From assembly GCA_026745465.1 (NCBI GenBank), contig JACYXH010000826.1, positions 7,694,224 through 7,758,223 of the forward strand: a DNA stretch of 64,000 bases, given 5' to 3'. Position numbers and translations under genes: made by a program. Positions 27,665-43,430 of the stretch are shown in pieces (the first letter of the stretch is position 1; each line of letters begins with the position of its first letter). The notes below the pieces were generated by a model that was given only the letters and a program-made list of their open reading frames with translations, did no database searches and had not been told where the DNA came from. Source of the stretch: Lota lota (lineage: Eukaryota; Chordata; Actinopteri; Gadiformes; Lotidae).

Positions 27665-27937
27665 CTGGAAGAGGCCCATGACGGTGGCCAGTAAGGGACA
27701 GGAGAGCACCACGTCGAAGGGCTGGGCGGTCAGCAGGATCTCCCGTAGGTACTGGGGCGAGCCGTCTGCCAGGGGGTCTGCCACCCCCCGCTGGCCCCCG
27801 GCCATGCTGCAGCCGCGCTGGGGGCGCTCGGGCCGCGTGGTCAACTTGTGACGGACGTTTTTGGTGACGGCCTGGGTGTAGGTGATGGAGAGGAAGCCAT
27901 GTTGCTGGTGCGACCCCTCCAGGACCCGTGCTGCCGT
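27665..27937 (-). CDS. vps13b: vps13b exon (273 nt)
   Basis: This internal vps13b coding exon is the largest in the window, 91 codons, phase 0 at both ends. The acceptor is CGGCCAG before ACGGCAG and the donor is TTCCAG before GTAGGA. The translation has HQQHGFLSITYTQAVTKNVR, followed by HKLTTRPER, then a Gly/Ala-rich stretch, then DGSPQYLREILLTAQPFDVV. QHGFLS-TYT-AVTKNVRHKLT and DGSP--L-EILL-AQ-FD are diagnostic of VPS13B. The stretch between RPER and DGSP is about 19 residues compared with about 11 that I remember in human, so it is probably a fish-specific expansion of a surface loop. The exon is joined directly to whichever of the two alternative exons upstream is used. Confidence 0.95.
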
Positions 27938-29228
27938 CTGGCCGGTGACGAGAAGAAAACTCCCTTTAATGCAATGCTGAGGCCCACAAACTGGAGCACT
28001 CTCAAAGAACAAGGTGGGATTATAATGGGGAATAATGGTGCGGTGCCTAATTTCCCTGAGGGAACTGACTTCCTGGATAGAGAGATGGACATACGTATAG
28101 CCTAAAGGAGGTAAGATCTTATAGAGATCATATGCAACTTTTCATGAAATTATAACATTTTCATAATCTTATTTGGTCGATATAGGCCTATATAGCAGAG
28201 TCATTGTGTCTGTAAAAAACGTTGGAAGCCACTGTGTTAGGGAATTATCACGTGTAGTAAAGTAGGTACACTGTGAATCCCCTGCAGTCCAAACAAGACT
28301 AATGTCCCACCAGGAAGTCAGCCCTCAGCAGTGTGGTCCATTGATCTAACAGAGCAAGCAAAACTAAATCTACTGCTCGAAGGGGAACGTGATAACAGTA
28401 CATTTACCTAGATGCTGTGCTTTAAAGTTAAAGACTGGAGCTGTAAGTCAGCCTCCTCTATGAGACGTCATACGTCAAACCTGTGACTACAGCTAGCAAA
28501 GCGCTGTAGTCTGAATTAGTGGCAATGTTTCTTGCTCACCACAAAGGCCAAATCTCCGGCCTAATGAATGATTTGCAAACTTAATTACAGCACAGAATTT
28601 ATTGAAACAAGGCAATAAGCAAAGAAAATAAACTCCAAGTGGACCATGATTAAATGGAATATATCACAGAAGGGAGCAGTACCGTTTGTTACCCTGAGAC
28701 GAAGTTTGCTGGAACTTCCATTAACAGTGCCGCTTATTTATTAGCCGTTAGCCAAACAGGCATCCAATTAATCAAAATTAAGTATAAGTGAAGTCAACTC
28801 TGCGAGTCAGAATTTGGGGAGTGATAAAGTAAATATATACCATATTAATATCTTTGTAGAAACAAAGTACGACTTGAACAAAGTAAATCAAGAAGGCGGC
28901 CTGGATGGCTACAGTCTGGCATAGTGCAAACACATGAAACAGAAACACTGATGGCAGATTCAATTTCACTGCTTTCAGACTGAGTCCCCCTCAGGCCTCT
29001 AGAAAATATGTTGCGACAACTACCTGAAGTGGTTACTTACACAACAATGTGTAGCCACCACCTCGGAGCACAATACTTCAATAGGAAAGTTCAAAATAAC
29101 TCTTATAAGAACCATATCAAAGCATTGCACTCATAAAAAATCTACCTGAGGGCTGCTCTGGAACCATGAATACAATTTAAAACAAATGATGGCACTGTTG
29201 ATGGAAGCTGAGCAGAATCAACCAAACC

Positions 29229-29320
<92 letters not shown>

Positions 29321-29477
29321 GTAGAGAGAGCGAGAGAGAGTGGTATAGCGAGGTAGATGTAGAGAGAGAGAGGTAGAGAGAGAGAGAGGGAGGGAGGGAG
29401 GGAGGGAGGGAGGGAGGGAGGGAGGGAGGGGAGGGAGGGAGGGAGGGAGGGAGAACGAGGAAGAACTTGGTTCTTAC
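27938..29477 (-). other. vps13b: vps13b intron of 1.54 kb
   Basis: It begins, in transcript order, at a strong GTAAGA donor, runs about 20 nt later into a CU-rich tract (29228-29458), and then is repeat-poor. The segment 28550-28640 is dense in homeodomain- and POU-type motifs (ATTTGCAAAC, TTAATTA). No further exon was found. Confidence 0.85.
29228..29458. repeat. GA and GGGA purine tract
   Basis: About 43 GA units (29232-29314), an interrupted GA/GGTA part (29315-29387), and a GGGA array (29388-29454) on the plus strand. In the transcript this is CCCU repeats followed by CU repeats, starting about 20 nt after the donor of the exon at 29478. It is a candidate PTB-binding region, triplex former and G-quadruplex former. 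Confidence 0.95.
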
Positions 29478-29619
29478 AGGGGGGAAAAAGCCAGAGAAGT
29501 GGCTGAAAGAGTCCTGCTTGCTGACGGGTCGAACCAGCACCGTGCGTCTGTTCAGCTTGTCAGTGCAGGATAAGATCACTCCTCCACAGCCGCCCACGCT
29601 CTGCACACCCTCCGCCGGA
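29478..29619 (-). CDS. vps13b: vps13b alternative exon, long form (142 nt)
   Basis: This is one of two exons that can follow the exon at 33243. The acceptor is CACCCACCAG before TCCGGCG and the donor is CCCCCT before GTAAGA. It accepts phase 2, so AG plus T makes Ser, and leaves phase 0. The translation includes PAEGVQSVGGCGGVILSCTD, KLNRRTVLVRPVSKQ and FSGFFPP. VILSCTDKLNRRT-LVRP-SKQD matches the longer human VPS13B isoform as I remember it. It is 75 nt longer than the exon at 30513-30579, equal to the 25-residue difference between human isoforms of 4022 and 3997 residues. Using both exons together would break the phase. A CU-rich tract follows its donor. Confidence 0.92.
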
Positions 29620-30512
29620 CTGGTGGGTGAGGAGCATAGAGGAGAGGGGAGGACCAACATGATGGACGAAGGAGATGGAGGAAAGCCACAGATGGGAGAG
29701 AAGAAGGGGATAAAGCCAAAGGGGAACATAGTAGATTAAGTGAGGAGAAGAAGATAAGAAGGGACGGACATAAGATGGGAGATAGAGACCGATCAGGAGG
29801 AGAGGATGGGGGGTGGGGGGCACAAGGGATTGGGGAAGAGGAGAGCAGAAATGAGCTTGGAACTGGGAGATTATTTCGGCAAATCAAATTAGGGAAAAGA
29901 GAACTGATTACAACCAAAAAAAAGCAATGTGGGATGAATTGGGCTGACATATCGAGGGCAAATGGTCTCATGCTATCCAAACATGCCAGGGCTCTGATAG
30001 GAACACTGTTGTATCCAATGATTAGGTGAGCATCGCTGGGCCAGGATCAGGCAAGGAGATTGTTCAACATTCAAAAGCCTGCCCTATCCAAGCGTTGGCT
30101 TCAGGTGTTTACATTACACCTGTGCCCCTGATGTCATTCAGCATGAGACCGTTTCCACACAAGCTGTGTTGTGATGTTGTCATCGAGAGACTGGAAGAGC
30201 CACATCACACAGCCCTCGTACTCCGGCCCACAGAAAAACCGCAACCACCATTTTAAAATCTTTTTTGGCTTGGACCACTCAGCCAATCGACACAGCTGGA
30301 GAGACATGGGAGAGTTTTGAATTGAATTTAGCTCTAACGTCAGGGTCATGCACAGGCTAGACTGGCTAAAGGTTTGTTTGAAAGGATTGGATCAGACCAA
30401 TCGCTGTCTCTCCCTCGTCACTCCAGCCCCACCAGCCAGGAGGCCTATCAGCAGCCGGGCGGCAGAGTGTTGGAGAAGGGTTGGTAGCACTACTGTGGGA
30501 CAGAGGCCTCAC
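29620..30512 (-). other. vps13b: Sequence between the two alternative vps13b exons
   Basis: A spacer of 893 nt that is spliced out whichever exon is used. The part at 29640-29900 is purine-rich on the plus strand, with repeated GGAGA- and GGGG-type words, and so pyrimidine-rich in the transcript just upstream of the long exon's acceptor. No other coding segment was seen. It is too long for the two exons to be incompatible by simple steric crowding. Confidence 0.8.
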
Positions 30513-30579
30513 CACAGCTGTCTCCTTGCACTGCAGAATGATTCCTTCATACTGGCCAGAAAGCCAGTTCTGCCCTTGC
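30513..30579 (-). CDS. vps13b: vps13b alternative exon, short form (67 nt)
   Basis: This is the other alternative exon, and the first of the two in transcript order. The acceptor is CTCTCTCCAG before GCAAGGG and the donor is GCTGTG before GTGAGG. It accepts phase 2 (AG plus G makes Arg) and leaves phase 0. The translation is QGQNWLSGQYEGIILQCKE then TAV, which matches the human shorter isoform pattern GWQSGHFEGVFLQCKEK. Its core G-x-x-E-G-I-I-L-Q-C-K can be aligned with GGCGGVILSCTD of the longer exon, as expected if one arose from the other. A minisatellite lies about 400 nt upstream in the transcript. Confidence 0.92.
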
Positions 30580-30975
30580 CTGGAGAGAGACACATTCTTA
30601 GCTAGGACAGCGTAATGCTAACCTAACCACTGGAGCAAGTGCTTAAGGCCTGAAGGGATGTACTGGAAATGGTAGCCTTAACAAGAGCTACTGCTTGCTT
30701 TAAAAACAGGATACAATGGATACACTGATGCTTGTGGCATTATCTTTTTTAAATCATGTCGAAAAGAAAAATAGCATTTAGTAATTTAGATAAAAGCAAG
30801 TGATATCTATTACTGAGTCCATTTCTCCAATCACACATTGCCAATGAAACAGTGCATCATCCCGTTCAGGCTGTTATTTTAAGAATCCATGTGGCAGTCA
30901 CCTGTGAATGAGAAATTAAATCAACAAATTACATCAAAAGGAACGTAATCAAAATCAGTCCAGAGTAGAGCAGAG

Positions 30976-31212
30976 CCACACATCATCACAGAGAAACACA
31001 ACCTTAAGAGGACACACCATCACAGAAAAACACAACAGTAAGAGGACACACCATCACAGAGAAACACAACCTTAAGTGGACACACCATCACAGAGAAACA
31101 CAACCTTAAGAGGACACACCATCACAGAGAACACAACCTTAAGATGACACACCATCACAGAGAAACACAACCTTAAGAGGACACACCATCACAGAGAACA
31201 CAACCTTAAGAG
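30976..31212. repeat. Minisatellite, about 34-bp unit, about 7 copies
   Basis: The tandem unit is built of ACACCATCACAGAGAAAC followed by ACAACCTTAAGAGGAC. Some copies lack one A (AGAGAACAC) and some carry AAGTGG or AAGATG variants, so unit length is 33 or 34 bp. It is an intronic VNTR candidate. Confidence 0.93.
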
Positions 31213-31214
31213 TG

Positions 31215-31345
31215 TGGAATGTGTGTGTACTGTGTACTGTGTGTGCCGTGTGTGTACTGTGTACTGTGTGCTGTGAGTGTACTGTATACTGTGTGTGCTG
31301 TGTGTGTACTGTGTAAGTACCGTGTGCATACTGTGTGCATGCAAA
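31215..31345. repeat. GTGTACTGTGT-type tandem repeat
   Basis: Irregular tandem array of GTGTACTGT and GTGTGCTGT words adjoining the minisatellite. All frames crossing it are short repeats and not coding. Confidence 0.85.
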
Positions 31346-33125
31346 CATGTTTGTAGATCTCTGTGCCTGCATACACACACACCAACCTGGTCCAACTCAA
31401 CCAGGTATACAGACAAAAACAGAGACACACACACACACACAAACAGACACATAAACAGACACACACACACAAACACACAGGTGTTATTAGGGTTATTAGA
31501 GTTGTGTAAGGAGGCCAAAACATGCACAACACATTTATGGCACAGATTTTCACATAAGGGAAATGATTTAACGATTTAACGATCTGCTCCAATTATTTTC
31601 ACAAACTCCTCTCAGCAATCAACCCCCCCCCCCCCCCCCCACACACATTGAACACACACATCCTCTCTCACATACACACAAATGTATGTCCATATGTGTT
31701 TGTGATGTGAGTGCATGTGTTTTTATCTGTTGACTGTATTACTGCATGTGTTTGGCAGTATGTTTGTATACCAATGCATTTCAAGTGTGCGTGTACATGT
31801 GTGCCTGTGTGTGTGCGCACACACACACAATTGCCACAATGTGTTTGTAATCTCCTCTCTCAACCGTGGTAGTGGAATTCTAAATGACTCATCGATGCAG
31901 ACCCCCCACAGCACCATCTATATCTCCCTCTCCCTCTCTTTATCTATCTCTGTCCTTTCCTACTGCGTCTCTCTCCACTCCTATACATCCATCTCTCGCT
32001 CCGAGCCATTTGTGAAGCAGCTGGAACACATCGGCTTCAATTATGTGTGAGCTGCTCCTTGGAGCAAATGAAGGTGAACTGTCACCAGCCGTCCTCTGGG
32101 GTCGCTGATAGAGCCACACTCTGTGTGTACGTGTGTGTGTGTGTGTGTATGTGTGCGTGTGTCTAAACAAGCAACTGAACGTGATGGCATTCCACCAAAC
32201 TTTCAAAAACCTCTACCTACGTTTCCACCAATAGAGGTTATTATCGGAGTCCTGCTGTCATCTGTACTCTCTCCCTCTACATCTCTCCCTCATTACACAC
32301 GCCTCCCCCATCACTCTTCCTGCCCTCATGCATTGTTTAACAATGAATGCTATCCTTCCTTCCCTAGGGTGCAGCGTTTATGTCCTGTCGTTCCCCTCGT
32401 CCAACTTCTTCCTGCTAGCTTTTAAATGTTTTAAATGAAATCAGGAATTATCTAAAGCACTTACCTCTTATGTCGGACGCCCCCCCCCCCCCCCCCCCCC
32501 CAGTCTCTCTTACTTTCCACTTCCATGTTCCGGCATTGAGACACTTATACTCAGAGGCCAGATGAGACGCCTCATCCCTCCTGTTAGGTCTGATTTAATC
32601 TGACCCGCCACACACACACATAACCTGGGTTGGGACGATGAAATACCTCCAAAATGATCTGTTCAGGGATGATACATAGGGACTGGAGCCCTGGCCTCAT
32701 GTGGGCCGGGATGATACAGATTATCATGGGCTCAGAGCCTGGAGGGTCTCCCACTGTTCCTGGGCAGCGCTGACTACTCTAACCTGGCTGGAGTGATGGA
32801 GTGCTCCCTGAAACTCCAGCCTTGACAGTGTGCTGGCACAGCGAACGCAGCACATACACTGAAAGCACAGATAGGGTGAGTCGTTTTGGGGCTCCAGGGA
32901 GGTCTGCTATAGTTTTATTTTGCTCGAAACTCTAAGCTGACCTAATCTGACATGTGGGTTTCTTTATTTATTTTTTGTGTATTTATTCATTTGGCCCACC
33001 AGAGCACACCACTGATTATCACATCAGCACCCATGGGGGTATATGAGGTTCATGGGCATGTTGCCATGGTCTGTACATTGGCAGTTATTCTGTATATATT
33101 CAGGTCTGTGCGTGTGTATCTGTGT

Positions 33126-33169
<44 letters not shown>

Positions 33170-33242
33170 CCTCAGATGGGACATAGTGATATAAAGAGTG
33201 CAACAAAGGCGGGTGCATGGGTGTGTCTTGAGTATACTCTAC

Positions 33243-33357
33243 CTGCATCTGTAGTGGTCGATGTTGAAGCTGACCACTTTACACTTGATCTTTGTGTAGA
33301 CATCTTGGACGTCCACCGATGCACTCAGGTCTTCCATTTCAGCAATGACACAAATCT
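33243..33357 (-). CDS. vps13b: vps13b exon (115 nt)
   Basis: This internal vps13b coding exon immediately precedes the alternative pair. The acceptor is TTTGTTAG before AGATTTG (phase 1), and the donor is GATGCAG before GTAGAG (phase 2). The translation is ICVIAEMEDLSASVDVQDVY followed by TKIKCKVVSFNIDHYRC, nearly identical to the human segment with EDLSAS-DVQDVYTKVKCK and FNIDHYRS. The pattern of alternating hydrophobic residues fits the beta-strands that line the lipid-carrying groove of VPS13 proteins. No irregularity was seen. Confidence 0.95.
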
Positions 33358-35722
33358 CTAACAAATGTACAAATAAACAGAACACATTAGGTATCGGCCA
33401 AATAGGTCTCCTTATACCCGCCCCTTTAAAAACAACACATGTTGGAGGATTACATTTAAGTTTGTACAACTTATTATTTATACAGCCACAAAAGAATAGT
33501 CAAGTTGTTTAGTTATAAATTGTGTGTATTCGTGTTTGTGTGACCGTGTGCGTGTGTGTGTGTATGTGTGTGTGTGTGTGTGTATGTGTGCGCGCGCACG
33601 CGCATGTGTGCATGGGCGTGTGCGTGTGCATATTATGTGGGTGAGGTCTTCACTGTATCTAACAGGGGCCAGGTCTGCTAATTCCAGGGCTGTGGTCAGT
33701 TCCTTCACTCCAAAGCCCCATGTGCTCATGATAAAGGTCGGTCCATGTTAGCCTGGATGAAGCAGGATCTCTACACACAGTCTAATCAGCCACAGGTCTG
33801 CCCGTAGACATGAGACCACATATAAACAAACACAAACTATGTAGTTATGCAAAAACACACTGAAAAAAACCAATGATGAGACACACACACACACAAAACG
33901 CTCTACCACCACTAAGTGTTTTGTTGTCCAACAGCTTTAGCAGATTCCCTTGTTTCGAAGAGCTTGGAGGGCCGTACTCAAACACTTAGTTTAAATAGGG
34001 AAGACTGTTTGAAACAGCTTCCTGTTTGACTGCTAAGATATCCGTCTGGCCCAGGAGCTCTGAAGCCCATCCTGATGAGCCGCCGTATGTGTGTGTTAGT
34101 GTGTTTGTGTGTCTGTCCGGGTATGATTGTGTGTATTATTTGCCTATGCGTGCCTTGGTGCACCTTGAGTTCAAAACAAAGCACCGCGCCCAAGCGAGGG
34201 AACGTGACTAAGCCAGCCTCACAGCAAGACTAATTAACTTTGCATTGAAGCAAACCTACGATCTCCACTGTTACCCTTCGCTCTCATTGTTTCCACTGAG
34301 AGGAACAGAGAGCTACAATCTGATCCCTGCGTTGGGAAACAGCAGGCTCGGAGCATGCAGAACCGTGTTGTTGTGCCGTTGCCGCAAGGTGACGAGGAGA
34401 AACAGCGAGACTCTTAATAGCGTATTCATATCCAAACACCAGGTCCACCAGCTTTATTGTGCATACGGTGGAGAAAGCACCCCTCCCAGCATCGTCAGAC
34501 TCCAACAGAAACGGAGCGTTTCCAAGTGTGGTGTTGATGTTGATTCATGAGCTTGGTAAACCCAGCCCTGGAGGAGAGCTGGAAATCCTTAGTCCCCTCG
34601 TCTGAACTGCTTTATCTGAGGAGAGGGAAAACGTCTATGGCTTGTTGCTTTATGCTGTCCAGGGAGCGTCAAATTTACTTCCCTCTCCCAACTCTATACA
34701 AACACTCCATTTAGGCCATAACCTTCCAATGTATAACAGCGGGGGAGACAAAGGGGGCTTCTGGTTCTCCTGCCAGTTAAAAAACACATGACATCACGGT
34801 AGATTTGCTGCGGCTATATCGGCCGCTTCCTTATCTCAGGGGAGGTGTTTGTGATATTACACACCATTCTTTTGATACACGATGTGTGAGTTTGTTTTCC
34901 CGCCATGAGGCTTAATGCCTTGCATGCAGTGGATTCTGGTGGTGTATTTCACCTTGGACACTCAGATGGCCCATATTACAGCCCAAATCCACCTAATGCC
35001 TATTTAGGATGTTTCTTAAGTCAAGCCATCGCTGTGAGGTCCTCCCTCAAAAGGTTCCATTTCCACCTAATAAAGCCCTTAAGCTGGCCAATCTGGTGGG
35101 CAGATGCTAAATATTACAGCCACCAATTAAAGATAAATCGAGCTTTTCATCGCCCCAGTAAATCTAAGGGGAGAAGAGGCAGCTCACTGGGGGTACATCA
35201 CACACTTATTTATTTGTCTTTTTCTCCCTTGTCTCCGCCCTCCCTTCTCCCTGTTCTTTCCTCACACTCCAGCTGACTTTCATTTAGTCTATTGAGGGAC
35301 AGAGTGGATCTCTGAACGTGTTGAAATGGACCATGGTATCCGTCAGCCTCTCTTGAAGACTTAATGAGTGATGCATACAAGGTGTTGATCAGGAGAACTT
35401 CAGGATCAGGAACGGCTTTTATGACGGACCAATTAACACTTTAAGTAATCAGATAGCTATATTTCATATTGCAAGGCTGATTATAGCATTAATATTTTCC
35501 AATGCTAGTATGGCATATCGCTTGATCATATTCTTTTTTCAGAATTCACATAATATATATAATACATAATTTATCTTGCATATCGATATTATATATTATA
35601 TTAACATAAGAATGTATATAATGAATAATAATAATTATCAACTGATAATACATATTTTGTTCATCATCAGTAGTAAACAACACAACACAAGACCTTAGAG
35701 TGGGCGTGGCGGTGACAACTAC
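33358..35722 (-). other. vps13b: vps13b intron of about 2.4 kb
   Basis: It contains a TG tract passing into alternating GCGCGCACGCGC (33551-33605, a Z-DNA candidate) and an AT-rich stretch at 35500-35665. The segment 34880-35130 is free of repeats and looks like possible conserved noncoding DNA. No exon was seen. Confidence 0.85.
33551..33606. repeat. TG microsatellite joined to CG-alternating segment
   Basis: TG units followed by GTGCGCGCGCACGCGCATG. It is alternating purine-pyrimidine throughout, which favours Z-DNA. Confidence 0.9.
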
Positions 35723-42322: not shown

Positions 42323-42526
42323 CTCGGTGGGGGAGCCCAGGTCGGCGGAGGGGCTGCAGGTGCTGGCGTCCGGCAGCACAGTGCCGGCACTGCTCCGGAC
42401 CGGCGAGGTCAGGGCGGCTCCCTGGGGGGCCTCTGGCACGCCAGACGTCTGGCGCAGGACGCTGTGCTTCTGGAGACGAGCCCAGGTGGAGCTCCAGCTG
42501 AGGAAGAGCTCGTACAGCAGCTGCAC
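42323..42526 (-). CDS. vps13b: vps13b exon (204 nt)
   Basis: This internal vps13b coding exon is 68 codons, phase 0 at both ends. The acceptor is CTCCCACAG before GTGCAGC and the donor is ACCGAG before GTAAGG. The translation starts VQLLYELFLSW and later contains TSPVRSSAGT and DASTCSPSADLGSPTE. Human VPS13B has VQLFYELTD, PTSPVRSS-GT and D-STCSPSAD-G in the same order. The middle (residues about 20-40) is poorly conserved and Pro/Ala-rich, and the Ser/Thr/Pro content suggests a disordered loop projecting from the rod, with possible proline-directed phosphorylation sites (SP, TSP). It is more GC-rich than its flanks. Confidence 0.94.
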
Positions 42527-42842: not shown

Positions 42843-43430
42843 ACATAGGCCAGGGTAGAGTAAAGTGAATGCAACATAGGCCAGGGTAAAGTGAATGCAA
42901 CATAGGCCAGGGTAAAGTGAATGCAACATAGGCCAGGGTAAAGTGAATGCAACATAGGCCAGGGTAAAGTGAATGCAACATAGGCCAGGGTAAAGTGAAT
43001 GCAACATAGGCCAGGGTAAAGTAAATGCAACATAGGCCAGGGTAAAGTGAATGCAACATAGACCAGGGTAAAGTAAATGCAACATAGGCCAGGGTAAAGT
43101 GAATGCAACATAGGCCAGGGTAAAGTGAATGCAACATAGGCCAGGGTAAAGTGAATGCAACATAGGCCAGGGTAAAGTGAATGCAACATAGGCCAGGGTA
43201 AAGTGAATGCAACATAGGCCAGGGTAAAGTGAATGCAACATAGGCCAGGGTAAAGTGAATGCAACATAGGCCAGGGTAAAGTGAATGCAACATAGGCCAG
43301 GGTAAAGTGAATGCAACATAGGCCAGGGTAAAGTGAATGCAACATAGGCCAGGGTAAAGTGAATGCAACATAGGCCAGGGTAAAGTGAATGCAACATAGG
43401 CCAGGGTAAAGTGAATGCAACATAGGCCAG
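42843..43430. repeat. Minisatellite, 26-bp unit, about 22 copies
   Basis: The tandem unit is ATAGGCCAGGGTAAAG followed by TGAATGCAAC on the plus strand. Nearly all copies are identical. The exceptions include one end copy with a 5-bp insertion, two copies with GTAAAT for GTGAAT and one with ATAGACC. Because 26 is not a multiple of three and the unit contains no stop in any minus frame, all three minus frames stay open for about 200 codons. This is not evidence of a gene. The last copy lies about 317 nt upstream of the acceptor of the exon at 42526. Confidence 0.97.

What the first reader, a model, noticed from the sequence alone, without database searches (positions are those of the whole stretch)
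29478..30579. A pair of mutually exclusive vps13b exons, conserved from fish to human
The exon at 30579-30513 (67 nt) and the exon at 29619-29478 (142 nt) both have good splice sites, both accept phase 2 from the exon at 33243 and both leave phase 0 for the exon at 27937. Using both together would shift the frame. The difference is exactly 75 nt, or 25 codons, equal to the difference that I remember between the human isoforms of 3997 and 4022 residues, known to come from alternative exons 28 and 28b. Each translation also resembles one of the human forms. This implies that the choice between two versions of this piece of the lipid-transfer rod has been kept for over 400 million years.
Basis: partly seen in the sequence, partly recalled or inferred. 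Interest (0 to 1): 0.78.

Follow-up and report, generated by a model that had tools for sequence, protein, structure and literature searches.

The report
Ancient either-or exon pair in vps13b
A fish copy of the Cohen syndrome gene carries the same two interchangeable exons as mammals; they look like very old copies of one another, and only one can be used at a time without breaking the protein.

Summary
On the minus strand, exon A (30579-30513, 67 nt) and exon B (29619-29478, 142 nt) have GT-AG sites, take phase 2 from the exon ending at 33243 and leave phase 0 for the exon at 27937. Either alone keeps the frame; both or neither give early stops. They match human exons 28b (67 bp, ubiquitous, 3997 aa) and 28 (142 bp, brain/retina, 4022 aa). 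Of 240 VPS13B proteins listed (top 120 of a fish query, top 120 of a frog query), 101 carry A, 131 B, 8 neither, none both in frame. (1) A and B are homologous over about 23 residues, each closer to its namesake across the fish-tetrapod split: a tandem exon duplication older than that split. (2) Double inclusion exists: three truncated amniote isoforms are A plus B read out of frame, so exclusion leaks and frame/decay does part of the work. (3) B's acceptor has a 234-nt AG-free pyrimidine tract. The pair is known in mammals; deep conservation and common descent are the added value. No RNA data were available.

The parts
33243..33357 (-). constitutive exon U upstream of the pair, ends in phase 2 (..CACTACAGATGCAG|GTAGAG)
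   Evidence: matches cod P0076 residues 1361-1399 at 97%
30513..30579 (-). exon A, 67 nt, orthologue of human exon 28b; peptide RQGQNWLSGQYEGIILQCKETAV (first codon split)
   Evidence: the same peptide type in 58 of 120 fish-query and 43 of 120 frog-query proteins
29620..30512 (-). intron between A and B, 893 nt, GTGAGG..CACCAG
   Evidence: length by subtraction
29622..29855 (-). 234-nt AG-free, about 80% pyrimidine stretch before the acceptor of B; suggests a distant branch point or polypyrimidine-tract regulation (inference)
29478..29619 (-). exon B, 142 nt, orthologue of human exon 28; first ~23 residues homologous to exon A, last 25 residues extra; holds the TGA (29562-29560) that ends the double-inclusion reading
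29229..29454 (-). CT/CCCT-type microsatellite just downstream of the donor of B (local to this fish as far as seen)
27665..27937 (-). constitutive exon D, 273 nt, starts in phase 0 (TAARVLEGSHQQHGF..), donor GTAGGA

Best explanation
The window holds the single vps13b gene found in a fish near cod, with an ancient pair of alternative exons. Shown: A (67 nt) and B (142 nt) are orthologous to human exons 28b and 28; both leave the frame intact only when used singly; their peptides are homologous, so one exon arose from the other by tandem duplication before fish and tetrapods parted, and the B-type copy carries 25 further residues at its 3' end (whether gained in B or lost from A is not known). 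Inferred: the ubiquitous default is A; B is chosen in neural tissue, as in human, through its long AG-free pyrimidine tract (distant branch point and/or polypyrimidine-binding repressor whose loss in neurons frees B). Exclusion is enforced mainly by reading frame plus nonsense-mediated decay of both-in and both-out transcripts, not by sterics or spliceosome type. The result is a VPS13B rod with or without a nearly invariant 25-residue insertion near residue 1400, probably a surface loop that changes a partner or control site rather than the lipid groove.
For: Frame and splice sites. Exon and isoform sizes and tissue use of the mammalian pair. 240 listed proteins: fish query 58 A, 58 B, 4 neither; frog query 43 A (5 of them truncated after A), 73 B, 4 neither; 0 with both in frame. 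Homology: five exon A peptides, searched against 126 B-form proteins longer than 2000 residues, hit exon B best in 112 to 124 of 126; shuffled peptides 4 to 9 of 260. Mean identity fishA-tetrapodA 53%, fishB-tetrapodB (N part) 58%, fishA-fishB 30%, tetrapodA-tetrapodB 42%. B's last 25 residues 81% fish-tetrapod. Both-in: tails of P0293, P0215, P0294 fit exon B read in the shifted frame with 0 mismatches of 20; shuffles 8 or more. Both-out: P0276, 0 of 25. A-to-B intron is 893 nt, with GT-AG sites on both, so close spacing or a U12 clash is not needed. AG-free zone 234 nt at B against 15 to 99 at 7 other vps13b acceptors; 5 of 3589 AG intervals on this strand are as long.
Against: No RNA reads were available, so use of A and B in this fish and its tissues is not shown; the public models are predictions at 90% clustering. 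Window A against window B alone is weakly similar (71 and 47 of 2000 shuffles reach the score); homology rests on the wider set. Counts are not independent (many close species). PTB-type motif density upstream of B is unremarkable (10 per 250 nt, reached by 9% of windows), and 3 of 11 acceptors were not placed for the AG comparison. The dog authors took the both-exon band for an artefact. AlphaFold2 models failed (mean pLDDT 36 and 41), so the loop reading has no structural support. Rodents that lost B (mouse, rat) live without it.
Confidence: 0.85

Rival explanations
1. Same pair, but exclusion is physical: competing RNA pairing, or a branch point for B placed so that A-to-B splicing is blocked, with frame only a backstop.
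For: Long AG-free tract at B; OGDH exons 4a/4b work through distant branch points close to the upstream donor (PMC7969005, passages).
Against: The AG-free zone begins about 660 nt from the donor of A, far from the ~50-nt steric limit quoted there; A-B joined models exist in 3 amniotes; the 25 longest of 66 inverted repeats found in 27900-33400 are CA/GT repeats inside the U-A intron.
Confidence: 0.15
2. The both-exon transcript is a third product with a function: a truncated protein of about 1427 residues (the N-terminal half of the lipid bridge) or a poison form that tunes VPS13B dose.
For: The same stop codon in B closes the joined frame in bat, ostrich, snake and the window; a 1427-aa isoform is listed for dog and bat P0293.
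Against: The dog RT-PCR band was weak and the authors thought it an artefact; short transcripts were barely detectable in human and mouse according to that paper. The stop overlaps the conserved Thr-Asp codons of B, so it could persist for free.
Confidence: 0.1
3. Two unrelated exons, or one dead exon in this fish, that merely share phase.
For: Unequal length (67 and 142 nt); window A against window B alone is near the shuffle tail.
Against: Both open with intact sites and orthologous in other fish; pooled homology test.
Confidence: 0.03

Closest known systems
Human and dog VPS13B exons 28b/28 (dog 27b/27)
   Same: Same gene, same place, same lengths 67 and 142 bp, same 25-codon difference
   Different: Here in a fish; tissue use unknown; the intron and flanking repeats are its own
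Tandem duplicated exon substitution events (236 curated in human, PMC9741552, passages seen)
   Same: Consecutive homologous exons used in the alternative, old, often neural; that paper puts most such events early in vertebrates
   Different: Homology covers only exon A and the first half of exon B; whether VPS13B is in their list could not be checked (not named in the main text, supplement not readable here)
Frame-enforced mutually exclusive exons (PMC5740500, passages seen)
   Same: Joint inclusion shifts the frame, which that atlas accepts as mutually exclusive
   Different: Length difference of 75 nt exceeds the 60-nt limit of its search for new exons
OGDH exons 4a/4b (PMC7969005, passages seen)
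   Same: Old vertebrate pair, long AG-free zone at the second exon
   Different: OGDH is enforced by branch points 25-41 nt from the upstream donor; here the spacing is far larger

Membership tests
VPS13B exon 28b/28 pair | Gene is VPS13B | tested here: met
   10 ordered tblastn segments to cod VPS13B; relatives score PF12624 VPS13_N above cut-off except the fragment P0002 (70.7 against 80)
VPS13B exon 28b/28 pair | 67-nt and 142-nt exons, 25-codon difference | tested here: met
VPS13B exon 28b/28 pair | Orthologous peptides in other vertebrates | tested here: met
VPS13B exon 28b/28 pair | B form enriched in brain and retina | not testable with these tools
   no RNA data; known for human only through PMC3128065 citing Seifert 2009 (not read)
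Mutually exclusive exons (strict) | Exactly one of two in productive mRNA | tested here: met
   0 of 240 listed proteins carry both in frame; but length and frame make such proteins impossible, so this is weak for RNA
Mutually exclusive exons (strict) | No transcripts with both or neither | tested here: not met
   3 both-in (P0215, P0293, P0294), 1 firm both-out (P0276) and 1 short one (P0306, shuffles also reach 0) among the 120 frog-query proteins; hence 'frame-enforced', not strict
Tandem duplicated exon substitution | Consecutive exons with homologous peptides | tested here: met
   tetrapod pair 0 of 2000 shuffles, window pair 71 and 47 of 2000
Sterically or U2/U12-enforced exons | Short intervening intron or mixed spliceosome types | tested here: not met
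   893-nt intron, GT-AG sites at both exons

The most novel reading that the evidence does not exclude
The VPS13B 28b/28 switch is an ancient tandem exon duplication, at least as old as bony vertebrates, whose neural copy adds a nearly invariant 25-residue surface loop with a conserved R-x-x-S site (130 of 131 B-form proteins) that could be a kinase-controlled docking site on the lipid bridge in neurons and retina. Its leakage product, A joined to B, explains the roughly 1427-residue isoform. Fish keep both exons and mouse does not, so fish and not mouse can test whether loss of the B form alone gives the neural part of Cohen syndrome.
Probability: 0.4. Interest if true: 0.6.

Novelty: already known. 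Interest (0 to 1): 0.36.

Why it matters
The mouse, the usual model, lacks the 142-nt exon, and the missense-variant paper annotates to the 67-nt form as the 'evolutionary conserved' one. The data here say that the 142-nt form is just as old and, in its second half, more conserved (81% against 53% for exon A). A disease gene for intellectual disability and retinal dystrophy thus has a neglected neural isoform for which fish are suitable models and for which variants in exon 28 deserve attention. The common origin of the two exons and the both-exon nature of the 1427-residue isoform tidy up the gene's annotation.

Tried and rejected
Structure: two AlphaFold2 jobs, on Ameca P0002 (A form) and frog P0001 (B form) with 37 aligned proteins, gave mean pLDDT 36.0 and 40.7; nothing is concluded from them and no fold search was run. 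No solved structure matched U+B+D at E up to 1. Polypyrimidine-tract protein: TCTT/CTCT-type motif counts upstream of B are not exceptional; the 107 motifs downstream of B come from the microsatellite and the downstream stretches of 11 unnamed fish ORFs printed do not show such a repeat by eye, so I do not claim conserved flanking sites. In those 11 ORFs (of P0048-P0061; several near-identical) the 42 to 60 codons before B are 45-70% F/L/S/P against 14-47% in 21 ORFs before exon D (of P0004-P0040): a conserved pyrimidine tract is likely, from translated sequence only. RNA pairing: the 25 longest of 66 inverted repeats are CA/GT repeats. One search tested the truncated isoforms with the reading offset by one codon and found no fit; I had misplaced the split codon, and the corrected test is, in which the window control also fits. 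P0306 as both-skipped is only 7 residues and shuffles reach the same score. P0200, P0277, P0307 and P0212 have other ends at this place and were not resolved. Sharks, lampreys and invertebrates were not sampled: the protein lists are the top 120 of 191 and of 441, so origin before bony vertebrates and the ancestral exon length are open. Seifert 2009 was not read.

Literature absence: in searches I saw no paper on the fish exons or on homology of 28 and 28b; supplements could not be read and most subscription papers are not held.

Full report
What is there. The minus strand of the window carries the middle of a vps13b gene. Ten segments of cod VPS13B (P0076, residues 1078-1672) and ten of Lepidogalaxias VPS13B (P0077) map in order from 49253 down to 3085. 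Between exon U (33357-33243) and exon D (from 27937) lie exon A (30579-30513, 67 nt) and exon B (29619-29478, 142 nt), each with GT-AG sites. Both lengths leave remainder 1 on division by 3, so A alone or B alone restores the frame of D; both together (209 nt) stop at a TGA inside B, and neither gives a shifted D that also stops. Searches of the 575-Mb genome with the peptides of B and of D found one place each, both in this gene.

Identity with the mammalian pair. [quoted passage not shown] PMC9188546 (passages) gives 3997 and 4022 residues. The fish exons have the same sizes, place and peptide type.

Conservation. A search with exon D (191 hits, best 120 listed, fish wherever a name is shown) and one with the exons before the pair in a frog (441 hits, best 120 listed, tetrapods wherever a name is shown) gave 240 proteins that were chosen without regard to A or B. 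Reading the stretch between U and D and classifying by peptide: first list 58 A, 58 B, 4 neither; second list 43 A, 73 B, 4 neither; none with both in frame. Of the 43, 38 run on into D and 5 stop soon after A. Eleven of 19 fish taxa and 9 of 20 tetrapod taxa seen more than once have both types (in the bat the A-bearing one is truncated). The two lists are capped, clustered at 90% and full of close relatives, so they show presence, not frequency. Frog, salamander, platypus, birds, gecko, alligator, rodents other than mouse and rat, bats and lemurs are among those with B; salmonid fragments show both A (Hucho P0063) and B (Salvelinus P0003).

Common descent of A and B. Exon A aligns with the first 23 or so residues of exon B (for example tetrapod RPGEGWQSGHFEGVFLQCKEK with SLGEDxWSLGQYGGVFLSCTDK). 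Five different exon A peptides, aligned to 126 B-form proteins of more than 2000 residues, find exon B as the best place in 112 to 124 of 126; shuffled peptides do so in 4 to 9 of 260. A single tetrapod pair is beyond 2000 of 2000 shuffles, whereas the window's own pair is only modestly beyond (71 and 47 of 2000 reach it). Across the fish-tetrapod split A resembles A (53%) and B resembles B (58% in the comparable part), more than A resembles B within fish (30%) or within tetrapods (42%). So the duplication is older than the split. B's further 25 residues are 81% alike between fish and tetrapods. In 131 B-form proteins the R-x-x-S before Lys/Asn-Gln is kept in 130 (columns 1-7 of that table are fixed by the search pattern).

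Leakage. Three listed proteins end shortly after A. The tails of bat P0293 (1427 aa), ostrich P0215 (1430 aa) and snake P0294 (1418 aa) can be encoded, residue for residue including the stop, by exon B in the frame that A-B joining produces (0 mismatches of 20 each; shuffles at least 8), as can the window's own joined reading. The bat test uses B from the same species; the other two use B of relatives. A frog model, P0276, fits skipping of both (0 of 25). These are predicted models. The dog paper's bands of 609, 684 and about 750 bp agree: 609 + 142 = 751 (my sum); its authors suggested both exons and thought it an artefact. Order A then B is therefore the same in amniotes and in this fish. 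The dog's listed 1427-aa isoform is probably the same product (inference from length).

How it likely works. The spacing of A and B (893 nt) and their ordinary sites leave no need for a steric or U12 block. PMC5740500 (passages) counts frame-shifting pairs as mutually exclusive and names frame shift with decay as one enforcing mechanism; this fits here. Choice is likely governed at B: its acceptor is preceded by 234 nt without AG and about 80% pyrimidine, against 15 to 99 nt at seven other vps13b acceptors (three more were not placed), and only 5 of 3589 AG intervals on this strand are as long. In OGDH such a zone goes with distant branch points (PMC7969005, passages). A repressor of the PTBP1 kind that is lost in neurons would give the human pattern; this is inference, and simple motif counts do not single B out.

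What it changes in the protein. The pair lies at the end of the Pfam VPS13_N region (profile positions about 1100-1316 of 1317), near residue 1380-1430 of 4000. The homologous part probably fills the same structural slot in both forms, and B adds a loop. Structure prediction failed, so this is inference.

Verdict. A true, well-observed and correctly interpreted feature, known in mammals and already present, form by form, in public fish gene models. New as far as I could see: the common descent of the two exons, the minimum age shown for both, and the make-up of the truncated isoform.

Noticed in passing
window 42860-43430: A 26-bp minisatellite, 22 copies at 98% identity, 300-odd bases upstream of the vps13b exon at 42526; it makes a 607-nt AG-free stretch on the minus strand.
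   Followed up: partly
window 29229-29454: A CT-rich microsatellite (TRF period 4, 56 copies at 84%) starts about 24 bases past the donor of exon B.
   Followed up: partly
P0090 (Phycodurus eques): B-form protein with only the first 30 residues of exon B before D, as if a donor inside B were used.
   Followed up: no
P0041 (Cyprinus carpio): U and a shortened B-type peptide followed by what looks like exon D in another frame; possibly a decayed copy or an assembly or model error.
   Followed up: no
P0141, P0154, P0160 (Poecilia), P0195 (Oryzias sinensis): Models with neither A nor B but other short peptides between U and D; probably prediction errors.
   Followed up: no
window 26495-3287: A vps13b intron of about 23 kb on the minus strand (from tblastn ends).
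   Followed up: no
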